Below the pieces are notes generated by a model. That model saw only the letters and a program-made list of their open reading frames with translations. It ran no database searches and was not told the origin of the DNA. A stretch of DNA of 64,000 bases, from positions 50,118,758 to 50,182,757 of the forward strand of contig OX485805.1 in assembly GCA_950295325.1 (NCBI GenBank). Direction: 5' to 3'. Of the stretch, positions 2,636-19,600 are shown in pieces. Position numbers and translations under genes: made by a program. Positions within the stretch are counted from its first letter, which is position 1; each line of letters starts with the position of its first letter. This DNA is from Polytrichum commune. Lineage: Eukaryota; Streptophyta; Polytrichopsida; Polytrichales; Polytrichaceae.

Positions 2636-3190
2636 GGTACGCAACTCCCATATAATACGCAGGAGGCATTCGCATTAAAACGGGTTAGAGGAAGGCTTTT
2701 GTAAGAATTATATCAGATTATACACAAATAAAAGGACCAAGAAATTGGGTGAAGATGTAGGAAAAGTTGGGTTGCATAGTTATTTAAAAAAAAACTCCAC
2801 AATGTATATAAAAACTAAAACGCTTATCTTTTTAACCTATGCCTATACATAATTTCAAAAGATCCACACGAGTGGTTGCCTCCAATTCAATTTAAAAGTC
2901 ATTGGTAATGTTTTATTTATAATAAAGAATCTTAATTCTTAAATCAAAAAGCCCAAAAAGTTGGAGGTCTGACCTATGGTTTATGTATTAAAAAATCATA
3001 TAATTAGGGTTTATGCAATTATATGCTTCAAGGTATATTCATTTACTATATATAATTACATTTTTTGATTCCTTATTAGAAGGGCTACAAGAGTTTCCAA
3101 CATTGAAAAAAAATATATCACTTGAGATTGGACTAAAATCCATTATAAGTGATTATAATCAGGACCATATAATACGGGAGTTGCGTAGCC
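2636..3190. repeat. ~555-bp TIR element with TACGCAACTCCC ends
   Basis: GGTACGCAACTCCCATATAAT at the left is mirrored at the right by its inverse with two substitutions, TAATACGGGAGTTGCGTAGCC. The interior is AT-rich and non-coding. No convincing target duplication was found, so the superfamily is unassigned. Confidence 0.55.
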
Positions 3191-5050
3191 AAGAATTCGG
3201 TAATCAACTACACTATCCAAGTTGGTTTAGTACCTCAATATAATTGAAGACTTGGGTTCAAATACACAATGAGGGCGCCCTTGATGCTAATGTCCATACC
3301 AGGTACTTTGATCATAGATGTCATATATATGAGTATATTTGACACCATGCAATATTAAATCCTAATCCAAACTGATGTTGGTCTAGAGTCCTCTTTTTTT
3401 TAGGGCATTTGTAACGAGGATTTCACATTCTTAGATACCAATAGGGTATGGGTATTTGACGGTGTTGTTATTTTTGGATGCCATTCGACTCTATATACCA
3501 TGCAAGATCCTTTGTGCCAAGGTAAAGTTGTCCTCATATCAAAATGGTTTAGCGTGCTATCGACTAAATGACAACTTGGGTATACAAAGATTCTTTCACT
3601 TCGAGATACCCAACAATTATTGATATTTGGATGGTATACAATTTCGATACCCATAGGTACGTGCTTTATGCCATTATTGATACCACACAGTCACCTATAT
3701 CCCTTAATACATACGAGTCCAAACGCATAAATATGACTTCTAATTGTAGCCCTAGCTATGATGACCACAAAGTTGAAGAACTTATATAATGATGTCAAGA
3801 GTGACCCCAACAAATAACATATACTACTTATTAATGGAATTCTAAATGGCGTTGAACCAAAGAAGAAGAAGATTTGTATTGATTCATCTATATATACGTG
3901 CAAAGATGTTATAAGAAATGAGCCTTTTACCATCCACTTGGGGGGGGGGGGGGGTTCCCATTGAGGTCACATTCTTAGATGATATTTGCTACAAAATCAA
4001 CCTCATTGTGGGCGAGGGTCTTCAAAATAATGAAGGTGTGTTGTCCCCCTTTTGTGGAAGCATTTCTTACACAACCTTGTTGAGCTGGTAGATCCTAGCA
4101 TTTAGCCATTGTGATTGGTCAAAGTGGTGCTTTTCTTACAACGTGTTATATCCTTTCTACACTGTCACCATGATTGGCAAAAATGGTGTTATTTCTGTAT
4201 TTAATGCCGCATATGATTAGTTGTTTATAATATTGGCTCACCTCATGGCATTGGTGCACTCAATTGTTGACGGTTTTAAAATGAAGATTAAGTGTTGTCC
4301 AAAGGTTGGTTTTATGTTTAGGCACTGCTACCTTATGGCCTATGTACAAAATTTATACGAAGAGTTAGAATCATATTTTAATATTATTTAGTAAATTACC
4401 TTGTAACCTCAAGGTGTCAACAAAGTATGCTAATATGTGAGATCGATGATCAATATGCTAAGCATGTATTTGATCCGTGTAGTGTTGAGTGGGAAGATGT
4501 CAAAGTGAACATGATGAAACATGCGGACGTAAGAAATCACCAATTTGTCAAGAAATAACCGTTGGTGAGCGTTTTATGCTTCCACTTCTTTGTCAATTTT
4601 TGTGCTTCCACTAAGAGAGGGGGTGCTAATCCCATCCCCACCCCAAAAACGCACCCTATGCAAGATTCCTATCCCCACAAATGAAGGGCATTTAGAATTG
4701 CCCTTTTGTTGGGACAAAGCTATGGGTGGGTCACTTATATGTGAAGCTTGTATTTGGAATTGGGTGCATGTAAAAGTTACAAGGGCTTGAATTTGTTGCA
4801 TGTTGGGTGGAGTGTTGTTGGTTTTTGTGTAGGAGCGGTTTTGGCCGAGCGTTGGGACAGTTTGGGGAGCCATTTGCAATGGAAGAAAAGTGTGGGGCTA
4901 GGGGAGGATTTGAGTAGTATGGGGCAAGTGACTTCAAGAATCTCTAGTGTGTTCATATGATATACAATAGGTTCATTATATTTTGGTTTCCACCACATCT
5001 AGGCCGATTGTATATACCACTGATCCACTTGGACTCCAAATACATGCTAA
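3191..5050. other. No gene recognised
   Basis: AT-rich sequence with only short random ORFs. A 15-base G tract lies at 3940-3954. No protein family, TIR pair or tandem array was recognised. The TAA at 5048-5050 is the target duplication of the next element. Confidence 0.5.
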
Positions 5051-5627
5051 GGGGCGCTTCACACTATGGCCATAGGTTGAGAGGCCATCGATTCCCACCA
5101 ATCAGATTGCAAGAAACCGAGAGTTCGACCTCTTGACCCTTCACACTAAGGCCAAAGTCCAAAGGCCGTCGTAATTCTAAATGATTACTTTTTGAAGAAG
5201 GCGACGGACTCTCGAAAGAAGTTTGGGACGGACAGGAATGGAAACCCAAACTATGCTCGAGAGGCCATCGGTCTTTTTTCATTCAAGAAATCAACCATCG
5301 ACAAGATCTTGGTTGTTAGATTGGAGGGGTTGTTTTGCACAAGGAATAAAGCGGGATGCTCCTTCTTCATGGGATGGGTTTGGACTTTGGGCTTGGCCTT
5401 TGGAGGCTTCACACTATGACTGCCCAAGTCGAGAGGCCGTGGGAGTTCATGGCCAAAGGTTTGGACTTTGAGCTTGGCCTTTGGAGGCTTCACACTATGC
5501 CCGGCCAAAGGCTCCAATTACTATATTTTCTTGCCTATTTTCAACCCATTTCTTTGGACTCTCAACAAGGTTTGGCCACTCAATCCCACGGCCTCTCGAC
5601 TTGGACAGCTATAGTGTGAAGCGGCCC
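5051..5627. repeat. 577-bp PIF/Harbinger-like MITE with internal TIR duplications
   Basis: The left end GGGGCGCTTCACACTATGGCC pairs with the right end reading GCTATAGTGTGAAGCGGCCC. The element is flanked by TAA on both sides (5048-5050, 5628-5630). Internally, blocks containing CTTCACACTATG recur near 5147, 5409 and 5490, and a CTTTGG-rich segment is repeated twice. Part of the TIR has therefore been duplicated within the element or elements have nested. It is the best complete match for the fragment at 1-102. Confidence 0.75.
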
Positions 5628-7004
5628 TAAGTTGGCCAAAGGATTGGTTGAAGCACCCACTATTTTATTAGGCTTGTTGGAGTTGTCATTCGATTCAACT
5701 GGAGTTTTGGTTAGGAGTTGGTTGTTCCATGTGCAACACCTTCCACGTGTGTGGTAAGTTTGTGCATGCATGCTTGAAGATGGTGGGGAGACTTGAACAA
5801 GGAACATTCTGTATCGATCTAGTGAGCACCCCTTAACATGCTGGAGTAAGTTTGGCCCTCAATGAACCAATATGCAATTGTGTTTCTTCGTCCAAACCTC
5901 TTCAAGCATGGGCCCAAACCTTACCAAACACATGGAAAAGTAATGTATGCAAAACAACCAACATCCAACCAAAAGCCTCATGGACTTAAGAGATATCTTC
6001 AATCAAGTCCACATAATCTTCAAAAAAAATGTATGACCCAGTGGCTTAATACCTGAAAATATAGCAGCATAGAGGTTGAGGGTGGGTATAAAGAGGTGGG
6101 GATTTGATGGCTTTGGTCATGGCCCCTGACCAGGATTAAGGTACGTGGGTGTAATTTGGTTCTTTTTTCATGTTCTCCAACTTCTACCGACTAGATTTAC
6201 ACAAACAAAACATGTGTTGCATTAGCAAATCTATGATGAAACTTCTGCAAAAACCAGACTGAAATTCAGACTTCCCCTTATTCAGTTATGGTTGTCGGAA
6301 GTGCATGTTTGCCACTTTCTTAATTAGATATATAGGTCCTCCCAATCGTGTTCACTATTGAGTGTAGAGTAATTATTAACATTCGAATACACAGTTCAAT
6401 CTCTTTTGAACATGTGTCTTTATGTTGTTGGTTCTTTGGTCCACACTAAACCACGTACCAAGCTAATCTAGGGGACTGGTTAAGAAAACAAGCCACTTAA
6501 GACCCATCTAGTTTAGAGCTTGTTGCAGAGCTTGTTGTTGGTTGAGCCAACAAATGAACCTTATCACGGGATGCCGGTGTCCCATAATACAGTGGTTAAA
6601 CCTTAAAGCACGTGTCGATGTCAAAAATGGTCAGTTGAAGGCGATCAAAGTGATGTTGAAATTATCTCGATGTCATGTATATGCTCTGTTGTTCGAAGTT
6701 GGTTTTCGTTTTCGATCACTTACAACTACAAAACCAACCATTAAGGAGGCTCCGATTTATTTGGGACATTCGTGTCCTGCCATAAGGTTGAAATAAACGA
6801 CGCAAATGAGTGTGTGTCGTGTGCTTTGATGAATAATTTGATTTGTTTGAGTTTTATCCGGTCCATAATGACAGTTGTTTTACAAGGGACCAAAACTTAG
6901 AAGATTCATTTTCTTAATGGGATTTCTTCCTCGCATAAGCTGCCTAATATTTTGTTGACAAGTATTTGAATACGTCTTCATGTTTATAATCACAAAGCAT
7001 CTTA
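5628..7004. other. Non-coding; carries one half of an inverted dispersed repeat
   Basis: 6270-6520 is a diverged inverse copy of 46,545-46,800. Both carry the order TTATGGTTRTYGGAA, GCATGTTTG, ATAGGTCCTCCC, CAATCTCTT and AAGAAAACAAGCCACT. The repeat has no coding capacity and was not identified. The rest of the interval shows no gene. Confidence 0.5.
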
Positions 7005-9343: not shown

Positions 9344-9998
9344 ACTTTACCAAACAACTATCAAATACCTCACATAGTATATATTAAATAAACAAAAAAT
9401 GAACAATGAACAAGCCCATGTGAACCCCCCCCCCTTCATGGCTTGGTGCTAGGGTCACTCTAGGAGTAGGGAAAGGTGGGAAAAAAATATTGTTTTTATT
9501 GTTTTTATTTTATTTTTTAGTTCTTACCACATTTTGGTTTCTATGCTTTTTGAGTTATTTGTATACTAGCACGTTGATTGTAACTTAGCTAACTAAAGTA
9601 TGGGACATTGGGGAGGAGTTGGGATGAACTTAGCATATATGTCAAGGCACTTCTATTAGTTTCATTCATATACTACGCATATCTTATGTCTTTATATGGT
9701 TTTAAATGTTGGTTAGATTTAGGGTACATGGATTGTTCATTCAAGTACTTACTAAGTCATTCATTGTTCAAGGTTAGCTACATTCATTTGTGCAATTAGA
9801 TTGACCCACACTAATTTATTGATATTTCACACTATTTTGAACATTTATTATCACAACAAGAAACGTGATTTTTTTTTCCGGGGTGGGGTGGGGGGTATGA
9901 GCCCAAAATGAGTGCTCATATTTGTTTTATGTTTAGAATTTAATTAGAATTGCAATTGGAGTGTTATTGAAACAATCAAAAGTATAAAAAGAGTGAGG
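9344..9998. other. No gene recognised
   Basis: AT-rich sequence with a C10 tract at 9425-9434 and a short G-rich run near 9880-9895. The only ORFs are short and look random. Confidence 0.45.
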
Positions 9999-10014
9999 CT
10001 TGGTGTGCAGGAAT

Positions 10015-10578
10015 GCTATCTTGTGAGCGGTGAGCAGTGAGCAGTGAGCCGTCAGCAGAAAATTTGAATTTTTATTCTTCAAATTTTTCAATGAAATGTA
10101 TGATATAGACCCTATGACCGTGGAGAATTTATGGTTTCATTCTATAAAATCTGCATATTATTTAACAAAAATTAATCAAGGTCCTATTTCCTTTTTTTGA
10201 GTTTTCGTGGATAAATACTTAAAATTTTAATTTACATTCTTATCCCTTATTTTATGTTCCCTATTATTTTGGAAGTTTTTTTCCTAAATTTTTTTTTCGT
10301 TTTCTTCCGTTTCTTTTTATGGATGGTTTTTTCAAAAGTTTATAATTTCTTCCACTCCACGGTTATAGGCACCATCCATAGTTAAACGTACCATCTACTT
10401 TTAGTCATATTTGTAAAGAAACTATACGAAGAGTCCTACTCGGTGTAAGAATTAAGTCAAATATTCTGATTTTTTTTTTAAAATCAATTTTTTTTCAAAA
10501 ATTTCAAATTTTCTGCTCACTGCTCACCGCTCACTGCTCATCGCTCACTGCTCATCGCTCACAAGATAGCGTCGCTGG
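10015..10578. repeat. Non-autonomous TIR block (MITE-like) at the left end of the composite element
   Basis: The left TIR begins GCTATCTTGTGAGC and runs through five heptamers into AGAAAATTTGAA. The right TIR begins TTCAAATTTTCTG and runs through seven heptamers into CACAAGATAGC at 10,570, with a variable seven-base tip to 10,577/10,578. The interior is AT-rich and non-coding. It could be an internally deleted derivative of the larger element, since its right half shares the CCACGGTTATAGG block with the end near 16,170. Confidence 0.7.
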
Positions 10579-10625
10579 GTGCATAACCTCATTATACGTA
10601 TATGTAGGTGTCATAATTGTGAACC
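10579..10625 (-). pseudogene. Fragment of a second SWIM-protein gene copy (near its 3' end)
   Basis: Read on minus, this encodes APTYTYNEVM, matching the sequence just before the C-terminus of the gene at 11,119-12,912. It is broken at GTTATGCACC, directly against the TIR block ending at 10,578. The missing C-terminal continuation of this copy is found at 16,276-16,320 on the opposite strand, beginning with the same ten bases. Confidence 0.65.
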
Positions 10626-10642
10626 ACTCAAACCGCTCACGG

Positions 10643-10950
10643 GCTGAGTTAAGGCCCACAATCTACAAAAGCAAGGAAATTAGATATTAGAAATAGTCAA
10701 TATGTAGGTAGCTACTAGGTTTTGAGACATCCGCCTGTAGATGCGAGTTGTGTAAGAGACTGGTATTAGGTCTGGATCAACCCGGGTTCGAATCCGGTTG
10801 GTAACATTGACTGGTGCTATCCCAAATTGAGCTAATGATAAAGTAGGAATAATCTATAGGTGGATACCAAGAAGAGGTTACTACGCGGATGTGCGTAGAA
10901 TCTTCTCGATTATTTTTTATTTTTAGAAACTTATTATTATTTATCCGTGT
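10643..10950. repeat. Candidate tRNA-derived SINE
   Basis: It contains GGGTTCGAATCC (about 10,784), an exact match to a Pol III B box, about 20 bases after a weak A-box-like TAAGAGACTGG. The end of the segment is AT-rich and T-rich. Flanking copies of GAAYCAMTCAAACCGCTCAC occur at 10,621-10,642 and 10,951-10,972 and look like long retroposition target duplications. It is not a tRNA gene: no acceptor stem or cloverleaf can be drawn. It interrupts the composite transposon. Confidence 0.45.
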
Positions 10951-11118
10951 GAATCAATCAAACCGCTCACGGTTGGGTCATAGTCTAAATAGAATTGAAG
11001 GTACTGAATCATTTGAAATACTTTCAGTCCATAGTTAATTTTTATTATAATAATCTAAACCAAAACATGTCATTTATTGACATTCAAATATATGTTGCTT
11101 AATAGAACACTTGCAATA

Positions 11119-12912
11119 CTACTCACATTCTACAATATCAGAAAGTTCAAGTAGTCGCATGACCTCATTATAGGTATATGTAGGTGCATGAATGAACTTG
11201 TCACTCTCGTAATCCACCTTGCACAAAAATCTAAACACATAATAAAGTTGTTTATAATACACCCATTTTCCTTTTTTTCCCGATGCATGAGATGACATTT
11301 TCGTGAAATCCGGGCATGTGCAATGCGAGATGTCGCCAATTGTGACATGGTAGGTAATATCTTGCTTGGAGACAATGTTGATTATCACTCCAAAGCCCGG
11401 ATATGAAATGGCAGTGACCCCAACCACATAGTAATCTTCCATGAGTCCGGTGCTCTCCCATTTGTTTTTGTGATCCGCCAGCGGTGCTGTTGGATTACGA
11501 CGCACTGTCTTCCCAAACCTGAATGTAGGGTGGACATCCAGGTTTGGTGGCATACAAAAATGCAAGCGAAGGTTGGGAAGAGTTGCGATTGTTGAAAACC
11601 TACGACGAGGGGACAGTGCCTCCCTCTGCTGTAGTTGAAATTCAACATCTTCAAGTGTCAAAACCTCCTCTCTCGATAGATTGGTACCTATCTTCACCGG
11701 CCATGTGTTGGGTACTATAGGCCAATCCAACAAATATTTCTTTTTACTGCCACTCCCACAACGTTTAATATCGTCAAGGCAAAACCAAAATTCATACTCC
11801 ACATTGTTGGGAGAACAAAATTCCTTCCTGAGCCCTTTGTATGTTGGAGCATATGTGCCATGTTTCCCAATCCCGACTTTGGTATTGCACATAGTCCCTG
11901 TAATGGCCTGCAGTGCCCAACATTGTTTGGTTGAGTTGGGTGGCAATCTTGCAATGTGCCACTTAGAAGCAAAACAATCAGTCTCTAACACAGATGTGGT
12001 ATGAGCCACACCATGAATTACAGAATTCAATGATTCCTCTATGCGTTGACGAGTTGCTCGGGTGTTGGGATGAGGAATGAAATAATTCATTTTGTCGGGT
12101 CGATAAGAGTCACAATCAACACCCGGTGATAGGTTGAATTTGCGTTTAGTGGATCCAAAGAACTTTGACCCTTCCAATGTACAATATCTAGTGTTGACGT
12201 CTTCTGTCCCTAGATAAGATTTCATGGCATCAACCAACATTTTTGGATCTTCACATCTGGCAGCCGCTTTGAATTTCAAGGATGCCGAATCAAGACTTTT
12301 ACCATCAAACCCCCTTTCAACCATGTCCGGTAATTTGCAATTTGCATGAAGGCACGGATCATGTCATCCACAGTAACTTTATATACACAAGTCATCTTGT
12401 TGCCGGACTGTTGGAGCCATTTTTTGTGTACAGTCTCTGCAAGGTTGCATGTTGGCATTTCCGCATGTTGTTCTATTGTCATATCCTATGAACAACATAC
12501 AAATATGAGGATAATAAAAATATAAGATATATATAATAATGGAAGAAAAATGAATGACATTGGATAATGAATTTTGATATGTACTTACAAATAGCATATG
12601 ACCACCCCATTGTTTGTAACGAAAGTGCCAAAAACCCAACCACTCTGAAAGGCTAAGGATGCCTTCTTTCGAGGCAGATCCGGATGATAACCACCAAGAA
12701 CAAATCACATTATACTTAGTCTCGGCGTCGTCCATTGTTTTCGCGTCTTTGTAATCCTTGCATATTTGCTTGTGTTGAAACTACAAGAATGGTTTGATAT
12801 ATTTTTGGGTCACCTTATCCAAGCTCGTAGACCAATGGAAAAGACATGTACGCTCATGTGCAACCATGGAGAAATACGCCACACAATACGAAAAAGAAGA
12901 ACAATCTTCTGA
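11119..12912 (-). pseudogene. SWIM-type zinc-finger protein of a Mutator-like element, decayed
   Basis: Exons run about 12,912-12,589 and 12,485-11,119, with a GTAAGT donor at 12,588 and an AG acceptor at 12,486. The blocks AEMPTCNLAETVHKKWLQ, EWLGFWHFRYKQWGGH and CTCPDF belong to a MULE-associated family known to me from plant genomes. The C-terminal part resembles a SWIM finger, where a CxC is followed by CxH. Here CTCPDF keeps the first pair, but the second pair reads Y-K-Q instead of C-K-H. Two lesions are visible: an in-frame TAG at 12,781-12,783, probably an ancestral CAG, and a frameshift in a G run near 12,316. The second exon is 1,367 nt, one short of a multiple of three, so a one-base deletion is likely. 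A third copy of the 3' end lies at 16,276-16,440 on plus. Confidence 0.75.
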
Positions 12913-13341
12913 GGCGGAGATGGAGGTAGGTTGTACGAACGAAATCGTAAGAAAATAACTTTAAAATCAAAATAAATTAGGAGGTATGTAATGTATACTA
13001 TATTGTGCACGCCGAGAATACAATTCCAACGGTATATAGCATGAACAAAATGATTTTGTTTTGCATGTTTTAGAGCCAAAAAAAAATTAGAGCATCTTAG
13101 ATTCTTCTAAAATCTTCAAAAAATGAAGATTTTATGCAGGAAATCTAACCATATTAATTTCAGTAGACTTTGGCGATTTATGTAAAATTGATATCATCTC
13201 CAAAAATTCTGAAAACAATTGGACTAAATGGCAAGGCTACAATCTATGCACTTGATTTTTTTCGGAAATAAATTAGAATATTTGAAAACGTTATAGCAAC
13301 TCTGGAAAGTGACTCAAATCAAGGTGTATTTCTCTTCCAAA

Positions 13342-13834
13342 TGGGTAGCCATTAACGGCCACCCTTTTTATGATGCCAACTTCTGTGTTTCAGTTTAGGG
13401 TGGCCGTCAACGGCCACCCTTTGTATCATGCTAACTTCTATTTTCTAGTTTAGTGTACCCTTTCTTGGGTTTCAGTCTTCATTTAACAACATAATTTTTT
13501 GAAATAAAATCACATATATACATATATTTCTTATGTCTGTTCCATCTAAAACACCCTTGGTTGCATCTCAGATTTATTGGTATATGTGTTTCTTTTTTCA
13601 TGTATATACTCATTTCCACCCTTATTGGAATTTCATATTCTTTTCTATATATGTTTCTTTCTTCATATATACACTTATTTCCTTCATTTTTTTTCCTCCA
13701 ACAAGGATGGCCGTTAATGGCCAGCCTTAGTGAAATCTCATTTTATTTTCTATATGTGTTTCTTTCTTCATATATATATTTATTTCCTTAATGTTTTGTC
13801 CTCTAACAAGGGTGGCCGTTAACGGCCATCCTTA
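13342..13834. promoter_or_regulatory. Four palindromes between the two divergent element genes
   Basis: Copies lie at 13,342-13,367, 13,397-13,421, 13,703-13,728 and 13,808-13,834. The consensus GGGTGGCCGTTAACGGCCAC is part of a 26-bp perfect palindrome, and each copy deviates at only a few bases. Copies 3 and 4 sit in a ~102-bp tandem repeat with ATATGTGTTTCTTTCTTCATA. Their place between divergent transposon genes suggests a shared promoter, or binding sites for an element-encoded protein. This is inference: no TATA box or start site was fixed. Confidence 0.5.
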
Positions 13835-14005
13835 TAGAAATTTCAAGTTTTTTTGCATATGTGGTTTTCCCTTATGCATACTCTCACTTTCATAAATGTT
13901 TTTGTATATTATTTTAGTTTGCATATGTGATTTCTTTCATATGTATATATTTTTCTTTTAATTTATTTTTATCTTTCATATGGATGATATTTTTGTGCTT
14001 TAGAT

Positions 14006-15633
14006 ATGGAAGTTGTACCTCTTTCTGAAGATCAATTGGAATTGCAATTGCATACATTTTTAAAGAAAAAAACTGTCAACACAGCTTCCCGTTTTGAACG
14101 GTTGAGGTATCAACCAAGGGCAAAATCAAAATTCAACATTTCACTATGTCGAATGGTTGCATTGCCTGTTGTTAGGTCTTTTTTGAAAAATAACGTTATA
14201 AACTTGGCTGCATATTTTGTTGCTTGTGGTTGTATGGAAGGCAATGGGATTTTTTCGTGGCCTTAGAAAACAATGAGGGTAAAATAATAGATGTTACCGA
14301 TAGTATTATTGAATCATGGAGTAAAAATTGGATACAAACAAATGATGCATTTGAAAAAATATTGCAAACTGATGAGGACCTCAAAGTTTTTTCTGGCAAA
14401 ATGTTCATCGTGTGGGATGGAAACCACCGTTTACAAGCATGGTTGCCCATTATTAATCGAGATCATACACATGATCATGCTTGATATTATTCTGTTGAAA
14501 GTATTATTTTGGATGTCAAGGGAGATATTGCAACCATGTTGGCAACTTTACATGAAGTGGTAATTCCTTCATTCTTCTCTTTTTATTTGTTCGGTTGATT
14601 TGATTTTTTTAAGTTTATTTTTTTATTATATGTTTTTTTTCCTGGGCTTATCATTGGTTGTTTTATTTTGTCATGAAGAACCAAAATTCCCATGTTTGTA
14701 CGAATCTTGTTCATAAGTTTTTCCGCATTCAAAGCATTGCTGGACAACTACTTTCATATTTTAAAAAAGTTGTCTCCAAAGAAGATCTTACTCCCGCTGA
14801 TGCCAAACAAAAATCCAAATATAGGACTTGGTTCCTTTTTACTGTTGAGGCTCTTAAATGCTTTCTATACTAGGTTATTTTTCTAAAGTATTAGTTTTTC
14901 ACGCATTTTTTTTCTTGTATATATATATATATATATATATTATATAAATATATATTTTATTACATCTTATTTTTATTATGTGTGATTTATCATACTCTTA
15001 TATGTTTTTTCCTTGGTGTAGCAAGAGTTGGGAGATGTTGCTGCTACTGCTCAAAAGAAATATTATGAGAAATACCCTGATTTTACACATTGGACTTCAA
15101 GTGCAGTGTATGAATTTGTTTCCAAAGCTGTGAAGAGGGTGAGATTGACTTCCCATTTGGAACTAAAGAAACAACTTCCCATTGAAGATCCTAGTCATTC
15201 TCCTATATTCTTAGAGCAGGTGAAGTCTCATTATGAAACTCACGATGAGAATCCTGAGATGACTCAAGAAAAACTTTGGATGTTAGCAACTTCGGCTATG
15301 GATACATCTATGAAGATTAAGTGGTTTGAATGGTGGAACAGTTCACCCACTCTTCGTGAGGCTCTCAAGTTTCCGAAACCAAAATTCAATGATATAGAGT
15401 TTCCTAAGTGACTTGATAAAGCTACTTGGTGGGCTCAGGTGATAATTTTTTGTCTATATTTTTTGAAAAAAAATATTTTTTCAATTATTTATTTTTTCTA
15501 ATTTTTATTTTGTATTTGGCAGTTGGCTATTGAGACTGAGAAGCTCTTTGATGCTACTGTGGCTGATATGCATGTGTCCATCAATTATCTTCCAGATGGT
15601 ATGGATCCTTTGCCCACTATTTTTTATTTTTGA
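14006..15633 (+). pseudogene. Second gene of the composite element, function unknown, decayed
   Basis: Four exons can be reconstructed: 14,006-14,559, 14,679-14,873, 15,022-15,438 and 15,523-15,633, all joining in phase 0. Recognisable stretches include KMFIVWDGNHRLQAWLP, TMLATLHEV, LEQVKSHYETHDENP and WFEWWNSSPTLREALKFP. I have seen this family next to SWIM/MULE proteins but know no function for it. Lesions: a T run at 14,250-14,255 lost one base (exon 1 is 554 nt where 555 restores phase). TGA at 14,482 and at 15,409 sit where Trp is expected. TAG at 14,871 abuts the donor of exon 2. The start is uncertain: an AG acceptor precedes 14,004, so an upstream exon is possible. The product would be about 425 residues. 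Confidence 0.65.
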
Positions 15634-16221
15634 TATTTGATTTTCAAGAACTTCAACAATTTAAACCTACTAGCCGATTTATATCTACAATTCACTTTTG
15701 TTGTTCTTTATGTTTTGGACTTCGTAAATGTCACCCTCATGATGATGTTATGATGTATTCAAATTTTACATTGATGTGTATTATAGTGAGACATTCTAAC
15801 ATGCTACACTTATTTTGAACATGAGTTTGCTTACACATTGTCTCCAATTACATTATTATTATGTCAACAGTTGAATGTATATTAGTTCATTTTTTATACA
15901 AAATTGTTATAGCAACATTCTCAATTGTTGTTCATTTGGACTATAGACCCTTACATGTAATTTCACAATCATAGGCCCCCAACGGATTTACAAACCATAA
16001 CCGGGAAAAAATTGAAGGCTCACAGGTTCACACTCGCATGCTCACATACTAGCAACCCCGAGTCGTGTACATATTGGTATTTTTCATTGCTCACTACTTG
16101 CAATCTAGCATTCATATTGTTTGTCCTCCCCAATCTTCTTATTATTGAACCCTAAAAAATTGTTTCTTTAGGCCACGGTTATAGGATACTAAGGGTCCTA
16201 TTACCAAATATTTTGTTTTCT
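15634..16221 (+). other. Non-coding interval between the second element gene and the inner right end
   Basis: No ORF matching the element genes was seen. From about 16,165 the sequence resembles the right half of the MITE-like block (CCACGGTTATAGG also at about 10,358), so this is subterminal element sequence. Confidence 0.45.
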
Positions 16222-16275
16222 TCACCGCTCACAAATTACCGCTCATCGCTCACCGCTCACAAGATAGCACTCCCC
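16222..16275 (+). repeat. Inner right end of the composite element (TIR with heptamers)
   Basis: Heptamers GCTCATC, GCTCACC and GCTCACA run directly into CAAGATAGC. A seven-base variable tip ACTCCCC follows to 16,275, then GTTATGCACC. It has the same orientation and order as the end at 10,509-10,578. Confidence 0.65.
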
Positions 16276-16440
16276 GTTATGCACCTACTTGAACTTGTTG
16301 GTGTTGTGGAATGTGAGTAGTTGTGCAAGTGTTGGTTGTAACCACATGTATAAGGATGTCAATAAATGACATGTATTGGTTTGGATTATTATAATAAAAA
16401 TCAGCAATGGATTGAAAGTGTTTAAAATGATCCATGGCAA
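16276..16440 (+). pseudogene. C-terminal tail of a second SWIM-gene copy plus its 3' flank
   Basis: 16,276-16,320 encodes VMHLLELVGVVECE followed by TAG, matching the end of the minus-strand SWIM gene (VMRLLELSDIVECE). The 3' flank from 16,321 to about 16,440 is the diverged inverse of 10,990-11,118, including AATAAATGACATG and TTATTATAATAAAAAT. It begins with GTTATGCACC, the ten bases that also bound the fragment at 10,579. Confidence 0.7.
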
Positions 16441-16565
16441 TAAGGCCCTTTCACATGTGCTTCATTCAAAATACTGGCAATTTACAATTGAAAATATGCA
16501 ATTAATTTGTCAAAATTCTGGTTATGTACCCTAAACCTGTGTGTCTTTACTAAATTTAGAGTTAT

Positions 16566-16647
16566 TGCTCATATGTTACTGCTCATTGCTCATGTGTTAC
16601 TGCTCACCGCTCACCGCTCACTGCTCATCGCTCATAAGATAGCTTCC
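16566..16647 (+). repeat. Outer right TIR with heptamer repeats
   Basis: Iterated GCTCAYY units, at first spaced by ATGTGTTACT and then tandem, lead into GCTCATAAGATAGC. This is followed by TTCC and the candidate target copy CTCGGTGTG at 16,648-16,656. Confidence 0.6.
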
Positions 16648-16656
16648 CTCGGTGTG

Positions 16657-19600
16657 TGAGGGGTTAGAAGATGTTTTTTTTCTATGGTTGTCATGTGGTT
16701 GTTGTAGTTTGGACAAAGGCCGTGCCAAATGGTGGCATTCTTTGTGAGGTGTGTTGAGTAACATGTGTTCAGAGGGGCGATGCGGTGGGTGTAATAGATA
16801 ATGCGATTGGTGGTGTAGCCCTTGTTGCTTTGGTGGTAGTTGTGTGTGGGGAGGTCTTGTAAGAATTTGTGGTGAAGAGTGTGATCTTGTGAGGTATTTG
16901 TGAGGTTGAGAGTGATCCAAGGGCCGAGCAGCTACCATTGTCATCTTGGAGTGGTTGTTTGTGAGGGCGGTGTGGATGTCAGTGTTGTGTTGTCGATTCA
17001 ATCCAGTGTCAAAGGGGCGTTGTCTGGCAAGTTGGTGTTGGGATTGTTCTTTGGAGCCGATGCAAGGAGCTATGCAGGTGGGAACTCGGGTTGGTAGAGG
17101 CAAGGGGTGTAAGTTGGAAGGAAACCTAGCAAGAATATGAGAAATGCTAAACACATTGTTGTATTGGACCTCTTGGTGCACACTTTGAATGAAGGGCTCC
17201 CTTGTTTGCAGGAATCATTTGTTGTTTGCCAATGTGTATGTGTCTTGCTATATGTGTCTTGAATAGTGTTGTGTTGTTGTTGTTGGTAGTAGTTAGGGTT
17301 TCAGCGGTTGTAGTTGTAGTTAGGGTTTCACAAATCCATGGTTGTTGAATGCGGGTGGGCATATGGATTTGATCTATGTTGCTATGCTTATCTTCTTGTA
17401 GTGTGGTGTTGTGTTGGTGTGTGTGCTTGTCTCCATGGTGTTGTTTTTTGTGTTGCATTGGTTGTGCTATGTTTGTGGCGTCATTCTTCGTTGTGTCTTC
17501 TAAGTGGTTCCTATTGTGGCATTGCGCCTCCTGGCTAGAGCCAGAGCACTCACAGTTGGGCCGCATAATCCATCCACCTTATTAAAAATGATCAATGGAA
17601 GATGGAGAACCAAGAATAAAAAAATTAACTGAATAACAAACGCATAACTCATTCAAACAATATTCAACTCTTCCTTTCATTTTTCCTCTTGCTCCCTCCT
17701 TTTTCCTTCCCCATCCTATAGAGGACCACACTACCCCGCCCATAGCACTAAACACCCTGCCCCTCTCCTTTCTTTGTTCTTTCCCTCCAAAAGGAAGATA
17801 TTAAGTTATCCTTACCCTGAAGCTTGGTAAAACATGATCAGCACAGCAGAGGAACAGTCTCTTATTCACATTGGTTAACAAAACACCAAGTGTTCATTGT
17901 ATTTTATTTTTATTTTGTTATGACCAAAACTGTGCACATGTACAGTTTCAGTTTCAGTTTCAGTGTCGGTTTCGGTTTCGGTTTCGGTTTGACAAAACAA
18001 TGCAGGCAACATTCAGCAAGAATAAGTTGTTATTTCATTCAAGAGACAATAAAATTGCAATACTCCAAGTAGAGCCATGAATACCCCTGTGTAAGGCATG
18101 ATGTGAAGAAGGCTTAAATGATTCAGAAAATACTACCTTCTGCACATGATGACGTGTCTTCGGATGTAACTTATGGCAAATCTTGCCTAAATCTGTTGGG
18201 CAAACTGATCTCTAAAACCAAGTCAATGCATTCACCTTCACTTTACATAGAAAAGACATTAGAAAGGTCAGCAATGGATCTGAAGGTTATTTCAGAATCC
18301 TATCAAGTAGAGAAATGGATGGGTAGTGTTGGCAGGGGAACTGTGACGTTGCTCAAACTGGACACTAAGAAATTATTGTGAAAGACGTAGATTTTCCAGT
18401 GCCAAATCCTATCCGTGATGCAGGAACTGTAGCCTGGAAGCTACAAAGTTTGGCCAAGTAACAAAAATTTGTTCACCATCCTTCTCCAGGGGCCTTTCCT
18501 CCCTGGTGTCTTCTTGTAATCTGTTTTAAGGCCAGGTTGTCTCACTTTTGAGTATTATCTGCAGCTAGGTACTACAAAATTGATTAAAAACGTACAGAGA
18601 CATGAAATCTCCACAAGGGTGCAGGTATCAAAATACACTCTCCATACGAATTTTGTGTTTCCACAAATCCTATCTAACAAGAGGGTGACTCCTAAGGATG
18701 AAAACAAAATGGGAAAAACAGAAATTGTTATACAAATCATTGTAACAAATTCCATCAACTGTTTCGAGGATGCAGTATATATTTTGCAAACATTGTAGTC
18801 CAGCTTTTAATTCCCTCATTCCTCCATCTTCAGAAGTTGATCCATGTCATCATGCTCAACCTGTCTCCGAGGAACATCTCGTACACTGGTACACATGAAT
18901 CGACCTTCCCTTAAGTCTTACCACTGTACTTTAAAATCATATTCATGCTGACAAATGGTGATGAATAAGAGATTGACTACAGAAATGGATGCTATAATAT
19001 CTTATCTAGAGCTGTGGCCGAACATGGAATCATAGTCTCCCAAACAATGTATAGTGGAGGACTAGTAAAAAGTGATTGAAATCAAAGCACTTAACTGAAA
19101 TTACTTTTTTCTTTATATCCACATAAGAAATTGGAGGAAACACCCCTACCAGAAGGTGGCGTGTTGCCTTGGTGTAACAGCACTGCAAGGTCTACCTAAC
19201 CTTTCACGACCAGGGGAGCTTTCTATGAGTTTTCCATCTATATATAGGAAAGAAAGAAGTATGGACAAGGAATGAAGAGACATATCTTGGGGCCGGCCCA
19301 ATTGAACGGCCAAAATGATGCTTCAATTTATCAATGTACAAGGAGCATCTTCCTGTGTAATGTATGAACTAACCTGAGGGAGGACAGGAAGCAATGACAA
19401 TATTGCTGCCCAAGTGGATGGCCAGAATCACGGGCTGGAAGTAAGAGTCCCCTGTATTGGGACATTGAATTTAAACACAACTAGGGACTGCTACTCCAAA
19501 ACATCACACTCTGCTATGTGGGCCTGGGACTGGGGTGGTGTTTCACTTTAGTACACTGCAGTGTACATGGGAAGAAAAGTTACCAAAAAACTCTCGCCTT

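What the first reader, a model, noticed from the sequence alone, without database searches (positions are those of the whole stretch)
10008..16647. Two-gene divergent transposon with SWIM protein and an uncharacterised partner protein
A minus-strand SWIM-type gene and a plus-strand gene of unknown function are arranged head to head inside ends that share GCTATCTTGTGAGC and heptamer arrays. Both reconstruct into multi-exon genes with consistent phases. The partner protein has ordered, Trp-rich stretches (FIVWDGNHRLQAWLP, WFEWWNSS) and no function I know. A paired gene set kept together suggests a two-component transposition system.
Basis: partly seen in the sequence, partly recalled or inferred. 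Interest (0 to 1): 0.8.

Follow-up and report, generated by a model that had tools for sequence, protein, structure and literature searches.

The report
Plant transposon with DNA-methyltransferase-like partner
The window holds a broken copy of a large jumping-gene family whose intact members carry two back-to-back genes, a transposase and a partner protein that resembles bacterial DNA-tagging enzymes and sits next to arrays of mirror-image DNA sites, which hints that these transposons may chemically mark or protect themselves.

Summary
The two divergent genes are real and recur as a unit: 92 of 101 scored relatives of the SWIM exon have the partner exon upstream, head to head. The window copy is dead and composite: a 570-bp non-autonomous element (10008-10577) inserted into the left arm of a ~12-kb-type element, the part from that insertion to the right end was then inverted, and 3.4 kb of transposase gene and 2.3 kb of partner gene are missing. 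Complete relatives (12.4 and 14.3 kb) have 10-bp target duplications (4 of 4 with both ends read). Their partner (about 1,066 aa) ends in a beta-class N6A/N4C DNA-methyltransferase-like domain (PF01555 over cut-off in one subfamily) with an altered catalytic motif; its 'ParB-like' start rests on a motif only. Three partner types each have their own intergenic palindrome array, and partner plus array were exchanged between similar transposases. ParB-methyltransferase accessory genes are published for algal transposons, so the kind is known; the SWIM/10-bp-TSD context, the palindromes and the exchange are what I add. Best reading: a sequence-specific accessory (anti-silencing or self-marking) protein, not a second transposase subunit.

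The parts
10002..10007 (.). left remnant (GGTGTG) of the target-site duplication of the original insertion; the other copy reads GGTGTGTGAG at 16651-16660
   Evidence: that four bases were lost is inferred
10008..10577 (+). independent short non-autonomous element (MITE-like), 570 bp, ends CAGGAATGCTATC... / ...GATAGCGTCGCTG, inserted into the left arm of the larger element before the inversion
   Evidence: query 10008-10572: 40 scored of 587 candidates match 476-565 of 565 bases at 86-100%, the window itself included; boundaries
10578..10587 (.). 10-bp duplication GGTGCATAAC made by the short element's insertion; second copy, inverted, at 16276-16285
   Evidence: present once at this place in L003, 627-636
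10578..16275 (+). main element from E1 position 627 to its right terminus (16255-16275 GCTCACAAGATAGCACTCCCC), inverted relative to its own left arm
   Evidence: collinear with L003/L005/L006
11119..12485 (-). second exon of the SWIM transposase gene (decayed; 414-aa frame 11119-12363)
12589..12869 (-). 3' remnant of transposase exon 1; the remaining exon 1 and upstream sequence are deleted (E1 2920-6287 absent)
   Evidence: left boundary by proportion from E1
13343..13839 (.). intergenic array of type-a palindromes (core GGCCGTTAACGGCC, partly decayed)
14045..14559 (+). partner gene exon 1 (decayed), with the WDGNHR motif
14676..14870 (+). partner gene exon 2
15022..15438 (+). partner gene exon 3
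15523..15630 (+). start of partner gene exon 4; the rest of exon 4 and the methyltransferase-like exons are deleted
15622..16275 (+). right arm and right terminus with heptamers (15622-16260 = E1 11989-12627, 96%)
16276..16650 (-). left arm of the element (E1 262-636), inverted; its terminus GAGGGAAGCTATC reads from 16650 downwards
   Evidence: 93% to L003, 97% to L005 over 16276-16613
16651..16660 (.). target-site duplication GGTGTGTGAG at the far flank

Best explanation
The window copy is a dead, internally deleted and inverted derivative of a large two-gene DNA transposon. SHOWN: full relatives of 12.4-14.3 kb make 10-bp target duplications and carry, head to head, (1) a SWIM-type protein of about 1,170 aa, taken to be the transposase, and (2) a partner of about 1,066 aa with a C-terminal beta-class N6A/N4C DNA-methyltransferase-like domain. 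Between them lie tandem arrays, long palindromes in three of five subfamilies, whose sequence goes with the partner type. INFERRED: the partner binds its cognate intergenic array through its N-terminal part and marks or protects the shared promoter region with its SAM-binding domain, which keeps the element expressed against host silencing. It would work like VANC of Arabidopsis VANDAL elements but with a bacterial-type module. The transposase moves the DNA without it as a structural subunit.
For: Head-to-head recurrence 92 of 101. Methyltransferase: PF01555 E=1.1e-7 (L038, profile 1-216 of 221) and 1.5e-8 (L039, 163-216), over the cut-off; PHROG DNA-methyltransferase families for L039 at 3e-5; profile hits to DpnA (9e-8), CcrM (0.0033), RsrI (0.0045), MboIIA (0.084). 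10-bp TSDs in 4 of 4. Palindromes: 213 GGCCGTTAACGGCC sites (control 2) and 724 GTGCGTTAACGCAC (control 0); 46 of 50 listed type-a sites lie upstream of type-a partners and 0 of 50 upstream of type-b, 43 of 50 and 0 of 50 the other way. Module swap: E1-B transposase 92% but partner 38%; E1-X transposase 45% but partner 60%. dN/dS 0.08-0.26 between L018 and L020. Published analogues: PMC12477816 (ParB-methyltransferase gene), PMC5735166 (VANC).
Against: Motif IV is not canonical in any copy seen (EYPD 7, DYPD 2, DYPN, DLPE, DVPE of 12; DIPY and DIPD in the two type-c copies), so catalysis may be lost. The ParB-like label has no statistical support. X and D, whose partners are type-a-like, have arrays that are not long palindromes. 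L024 shows no transposase within 9.4 kb. Among young copies the methyltransferase exons are not visibly constrained (dN/dS 1.1-1.8 on few changes) and E1-E2 look neutral. No binding, methylation or expression data exist here; partner and array are physically linked, so association alone does not prove binding.
Confidence: 0.55

Rival explanations
1. Two-component transposition: the partner is needed for the DNA reaction itself (end pairing, targeting or integration), as mudrB has been proposed to be in MuDR (recalled, not looked up).
For: The pair is kept in 92 of 101 cases and in 5 of 6 subfamilies inspected; a DNA-modifying or DNA-binding partner could act at the heptamer ends.
Against: No transposase-like domain detected in the partner; the arrays that go with partner type are intergenic, not at the ends; one transposase type (84-92% identical) goes with three very different partners (32-38%), unlike an obligate complex.
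Confidence: 0.2
2. The partner's methyltransferase domain is catalytically dead and the protein is a DNA-binding regulator (repressor or activator) of the bidirectional promoter.
For: Motif IV lacks DPPY in 12 of 12 aligned copies and in the two type-c copies; motif I and the palindromes remain.
Against: The domain is kept across subfamilies (dN 0.31-0.43 with saturated dS); one copy keeps D-I-P-Y.
Confidence: 0.2
3. The partner is passive cargo: a captured gene carried along (Pack-MULE-like) without a role.
For: Many copies are decayed; several fetched copies show no methyltransferase exons (W, E6, L005).
Against: Orientation and position are the same in subfamilies whose transposases are only 42-52% identical; dN/dS 0.08-0.26 between L018 and L020; 283 distinct places after merging two capped lists.
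Confidence: 0.05

Closest known systems
[quoted passage not shown] its refs 50, 51 not read)
   Same: DNA transposon of more than 10 kb; second gene on the strand opposite the transposase; about 1,100 aa (1,104 there, 1,066 here); N4C/N6A DNA-methyltransferase domain; ParB-like region (there by domain, here by motif).
   Different: Here the transposase is SWIM-type with 10-bp TSDs, not Sola1; a green plant; motif IV altered; subfamily-specific palindrome arrays and module exchange, which that section does not report.
VANDAL elements with VANC anti-silencing proteins (PMC5735166: outline, abstract and section 9 read)
   Same: Transposase more conserved than the partner; partner targets in noncoding DNA, often tandem repeats that vary between related elements.
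   Different: No DUF1985/DUF287 found in the partner; it has a methyltransferase-like domain; no functional data here.
Mutator-like elements (MULEs) with a second antisense gene (PMC6446971: passages read)
   Same: TSD length 8-11 bp, TIRs, SWIM finger, optional second gene in antisense.
   Different: PF10551 (MULE) does not match this transposase; the words ParB, methylase and methyltransferase do not occur in that paper's main text.
Bacterial ParB_N-N6_N4_Mtase fusions (C12 and C10 contigs of this assembly)
   Same: Same domain order, ParB-type domain first, methyltransferase last.
   Different: Canonical DPPY, not in a eukaryotic transposon; hhalign, run with the C12 protein, links only the motif-I segment (39% probability, E 0.0003).

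Membership tests
Mutator-like elements (MULE) | 8-11 bp target-site duplication | tested here: met
   10 bp in 4 of 4 elements with both ends read: CCAACTAAGT (E1; up to 12 bp shared, depending on where the ends are drawn), GGGGTGCTAT, TTGTTAGCTC, TAGGTATTTC
Mutator-like elements (MULE) | terminal inverted repeats | tested here: met
   47 bp at 91% in E1, 42 bp at 95% in L014x
Mutator-like elements (MULE) | MULE/DDE catalytic domain (PF10551) | tested here: inconclusive
   no Pfam match; hhalign with three sequences a side gives 0.1% (no positive control); AlphaFold pLDDT 46; Foldseek no meaningful match. A D..D..E order is visible only by eye.
Mutator-like elements (MULE) | SWIM zinc finger | tested here: inconclusive
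   PF04434 9.8 bits against a cut-off of 19.6 in L003, 8.7 in the window; C-x-C...C-x-H present in L003 by eye
beta-class N6A/N4C DNA methyltransferase (PF01555) | profile match over curated cut-off | tested here: met
   type c: 32.4 and 35.3 bits against 26.7; type a alone is below cut-off (18 and 12 bits), but a profile of six copies hits DpnA at 2.6e-5
beta-class N6A/N4C DNA methyltransferase (PF01555) | catalytic motif IV [DNS]PP[YFW] (recalled) | tested here: not met
   0 of 12 aligned copies; DIPY and DIPD in the two type-c copies; not found in the one type-b copy checked
ParB/Srx domain (PF02195) | profile match | tested here: not met
   no ParB family among matches of 11 exons; genome-wide PF02195 gives 4 hits, all on small contigs C10, C12, C23; hhalign 0.1%. 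A WDGNHR motif is all that supports it.
Transposon ParB-methyltransferase accessory proteins (Ectocarpus type) | methyltransferase gene on the strand opposite the transposase in the same element | tested here: met
   E1 and X carry matches to exons 1-7 opposite the transposase;
Transposon ParB-methyltransferase accessory proteins (Ectocarpus type) | sequence homology to the published proteins | not testable with these tools
   I had no copy of those sequences
VANC anti-silencing proteins | DUF1985/DUF287 domains | tested here: not met
   Pfam scan of 988 of the partner's 1,066 aa shows only PF01555
VANC anti-silencing proteins | sequence-specific loss of silencing on own element | not testable with these tools
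   needs methylome and expression data

The most novel reading that the evidence does not exclude
These elements carry an exchangeable self-marking cassette: a methyltransferase-type partner plus its own palindromic target array between two divergent genes. The cassette is swapped as a unit between nearly identical transposases, as specificity modules are in restriction-modification systems, and it lets each subfamily write a private DNA mark (6mA or 4mC) on itself to escape host silencing or to distinguish self from rival copies.
Probability: 0.25. Interest if true: 0.87.

Novelty: new variant of a known kind. Interest (0 to 1): 0.62.

Why it matters
Whether eukaryotic transposons use bacterial-type N6A/N4C methyltransferases to mark themselves is, as far as the papers I saw go, proposed but untested; the cases named there are algal. 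Here is a family with hundreds of copies in one genome, with candidate target palindromes for three partner types and natural partner swaps on similar transposases. That makes partner-target specificity directly testable. If the marking reading holds, it would be a second, independent invention of VANC-like sequence-specific anti-silencing, built from a prokaryotic module.

Tried and rejected
ParB by profile: Pfam, PDB hmmsearch, genome-wide PF02195 and hhalign against four bacterial ParB domains all failed. In one search the unrelated-looking DUF5531 matched 4 of 11 exons weakly (best 0.013). AlphaFold of exon 1 (11 rows) gave pLDDT 40 and of the transposase core (5 rows) 46; Foldseek on the latter returned mostly tyrosine phosphatases at TM about 0.13, nothing at E<=0.001. 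hhalign of the transposase with three MULE-like loci of the same genome failed (very shallow profiles, no positive control run). PDB search with the transposase profile gave a snake-venom lectin-type chain at 0.0005 and weaker unrelated hits, taken as chance. Viral contigs: 51 and 34 pattern stretches, none confirmed. Phage tblastn of the type-c partner: three methyltransferase hits at E 0.1-0.8. A long open frame at L008 was mostly a run of N, not a gene. Paper searches for this combination: (listings seen); the only paper I opened that describes such a gene is PMC12477816. Its refs 50 and 51 were not read: the Bostrychia paper is not held; ref 50, which I recall as a 2011 review by Iyer and co-workers, was not looked up. 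Type-b motif IV was not found in the one copy checked.

In one search the partner list was the union of two capped lists (148 and 150, 283 after merging); the 101 transposase matches are those scored out of 3,139 candidates, that is, the closest relatives of the window. One search used the first 50 listed places of each pattern, of 213 and 724, on C1-C2 and on C1.
Full report
WHAT IS IN THE WINDOW. The window lies at C3:50118758-50182757 of a 407.8-Mb assembly in 64 contigs. A 146,561-bp contig encodes a green-plant rbcL; I could not name the species. The 14-mer terminus occurs four times within one mismatch, against 0.08 expected.

THE WINDOW COPY IS COMPOSITE. Aligned with other copies and checked base by base, the stretch resolves as follows. 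Window 10008-10577 is a separate 570-bp short element; with 10008-10572 as query, 40 of 587 candidates were scored and match 476-565 of 565 bases at 86-100%, the window itself being one of the 40. It is followed directly by GGTGCATAAC (10578-10587), a 10-bp word present once at that place in the uninterrupted arm (L003 627-636) and recurring inverted at 16276-16285. Window 10578-16275 runs collinear with the element from position 627 to its right terminus, apart from deletions; 16276-16650 is the left arm (262-636) turned round. The simplest history: the short element inserted into the left arm with a 10-bp duplication; then the piece from the short element's outer end to the element's right end was cut and rejoined in reverse, with loss of four bases at one junction (GGTGTG at 10002-10007 against GGTGTGTGAG at 16651-16660). 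That history is inferred; breakpoints exactly at two termini suggest that the transposase did the cutting. Two deletions removed E1 2920-6287 (most of transposase exon 1) and E1 9732-11988 (rest of the partner). The copy cannot code for either full protein.

COMPLETE RELATIVES. E1 (L003+L009) is 12,395 bp with a 47-bp TIR (length). L014x (L014+L030) is 14,280 bp with a 42-bp TIR (length). Both, with L005 and L006+L012, have 10-bp target duplications, 4 of 4 with both ends read; in E1 up to 12 bp are shared, and the element ends were set by the other two. The ends of E1, L005 and L006 are GAGGGAAGCTATC... and ...GATAGCACTCCCC, with heptamers inside. E2, B, C and D were not read at both ends. 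The SWIM gene in E1 is exon 1 (712 aa to the intron, boundary placed by eye) plus a 455-aa second exon.

THE PARTNER. The best-preserved copy I read, L013, has eight exons with GT-AG introns and an open frame of 1,066 aa. Exons 5-7 resemble beta-class N6A/N4C DNA methyltransferases: PF01555 at E=0.003, below cut-off; a profile of six copies hits adenine methyltransferase DpnA at 2.6e-5 and aligns with CcrM over positions 18-235 (E 0.018); adding type c gives DpnA 9e-8, CcrM 0.0033, RsrI 0.0045, MboIIA 0.084. Type-c partners (L038, L039), with this domain in one 577-aa frame, pass the curated cut-off (E=1.1e-7 over the whole profile, 1.5e-8 over its last quarter) and L039 matches phage DNA-methyltransferase families (best 3e-5). 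Genome-wide PF01555 finds 38 matches, 5 over the cut-off: three on small contigs and two chromosomal, the type-c pair. Motif I reads DxTASTG in 7 of the 10 rows that reach it and DLFVGTG in L039. Motif IV, normally DPPY (recalled), is EYPD in 7, DYPD in 2, DYPN, DLPE and DVPE in one each of 12 aligned copies, and DIPY or DIPD in type c. So homology to SAM-dependent DNA methyltransferases is well supported and activity is open. The N-terminal region carries a conserved VWDGNHR-x-x-AW motif that recalls ParB, and bacterial ParB_N-methyltransferase fusions with the same order sit on small contigs of this assembly, but no profile method links the two. I keep 'ParB-like' as a label only.

THE PAIR RECURS. 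Of 101 scored SWIM-exon matches, 92 have a partner exon upstream on the other strand within 20 kb (24 found with the window's ParB-like exon, 68 with that of subfamily B), 1 has one downstream on the same strand and 8 have none listed. Five hundred random rotations gave a mean of 0.66 and a maximum of 4. The sample is the closest relatives only (101 of 3,139 candidates). Examined one by one, E1, B (L032+L031), X (L014x), C (L045+L038) and D (L046+L020) are head to head; L024, with 9.4 kb upstream in L047, showed no transposase.

PARTNERS ARE EXCHANGED. Identities (partner exons 1-3, stitched from translated matches): transposases E1-B 92%, E1-C 84%, B-C 87%, but partners E1-B 38%, E1-C 32%, B-C 33%. 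Conversely transposases E1-X 45% and E1-D 44%, but partners 60% and 60%. If the partner merely evolved faster, E1-X would not be expected to exceed E1-B. DNA similarity of E1 and B covers the left arm and transposase gene and stops in the intergenic region at E1 5568 (B's right end was not fetched). So array plus partner appear to have moved between elements; I built no trees.

COGNATE ARRAYS. The intergenic region of E1 has 7 palindromes with arms of at least 10 bp (core GGCCGTTAACGGCC or variants, 105-bp period), B has 11 (4 on GTGCGTTAACGCAC or a one-base variant, in 65-bp units; 7 on GGTCGNNCGACC or a variant, in 32-bp units), C has 7 (6 variants of GTGCGCTRGCGCAC, about 104-bp period); 20 shuffles each give means of 0.15-0.35, at most 2. 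X and D have none, but tandem arrays of 117-bp and 373-bp units. Genome-wide the type-a core occurs 213 times (reversed control 2) and the type-b core 724 times (control 0). Of the first 50 listed sites, 46 of 50 type-a sites lie within 7 kb upstream of a type-a partner and 0 of 50 of a type-b; 43 of 50 type-b sites lie upstream of a type-b partner and 0 of 50 of a type-a. The rest have no listed partner near; the lists are capped.

SELECTION (NG86). L018-L020: 0.08 (exons 1-2), 0.17 (3-4), 0.26 (methyltransferase exons). Four closer pairs among L013, L014, L016, L021, L026: 0.27-0.47 and 0.19-0.27 for the first two blocks, but 1.1-1.8 in the methyltransferase exons of three of them, on very few changes. 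E1-W 0.48 and 0.28. Against: E1-E2 0.71-1.15 and W-L005 1.03 and 0.43, as in decaying copies. Between subfamilies (four pairs) dN is 0.30-0.52 with dS saturated. The gene was kept by selection while active; many copies are now decaying.

MECHANISM. The element's two genes share one intergenic region that holds tandem sites specific to the partner type. [quoted passage not shown] I therefore favour an accessory that binds its array and marks or shields the promoter (inferred, not shown). A dead methyltransferase acting as a DNA-binding regulator is close behind. A structural second subunit of the transposase is less likely, because similar transposases go with three very different partners and the arrays are not at the ends.

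WHAT IS KNOWN. [quoted passage not shown] The general idea is therefore in print. I saw no description of it with a SWIM/10-bp-TSD element, of matching palindrome arrays, or of partner exchange in the listings of searches; the two papers it cites for green and red algae were not available to me or not looked up. MULE membership is likely from TSD length, TIRs and a SWIM-like finger (MULE TSD range 8-11 bp, PMC6446971, passages read), but the MULE domain itself was not detected, so I do not file it as a proven MULE.

Noticed in passing
L038 100-1264 (C1:9657599-9658763): Open frames upstream of the type-c ParB-like exon read like a protein kinase (GRGSYGVVWK, HCDLSFTN, GDWG by eye); Pfam Pkinase only E 0.21. 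Possibly a third gene or an N-terminal extension of the partner.
   Followed up: partly
G000 contigs C10, C12, C23 (L040-L043): Small contigs carry bacterial-looking ParB_N genes, two of them fused to N6_N4_Mtase; probably contaminant or associated bacteria in the assembly.
   Followed up: partly
window 9896-10007: Repeat, 98% identical and inverted at L005 338-449, that ends exactly at the element's insertion point.
   Followed up: no
L007 358-7531: Two partner genes in inverted orientation in one locus, with a long imperfect inverted repeat around them: a nested or fold-back copy.
   Followed up: no
[quoted passage not shown]
   Followed up: partly
L016 207-1011: A second, 35%-identical ParB-like gene start beside a type-L013 element; its type was not determined.
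   Followed up: no
window 11005-11187: A direct duplication of about 180 bp inside the left arm (E1 478-660 and 1054-1236, about 82%), seen in 5 of 5 loci compared with the window.
   Followed up: no
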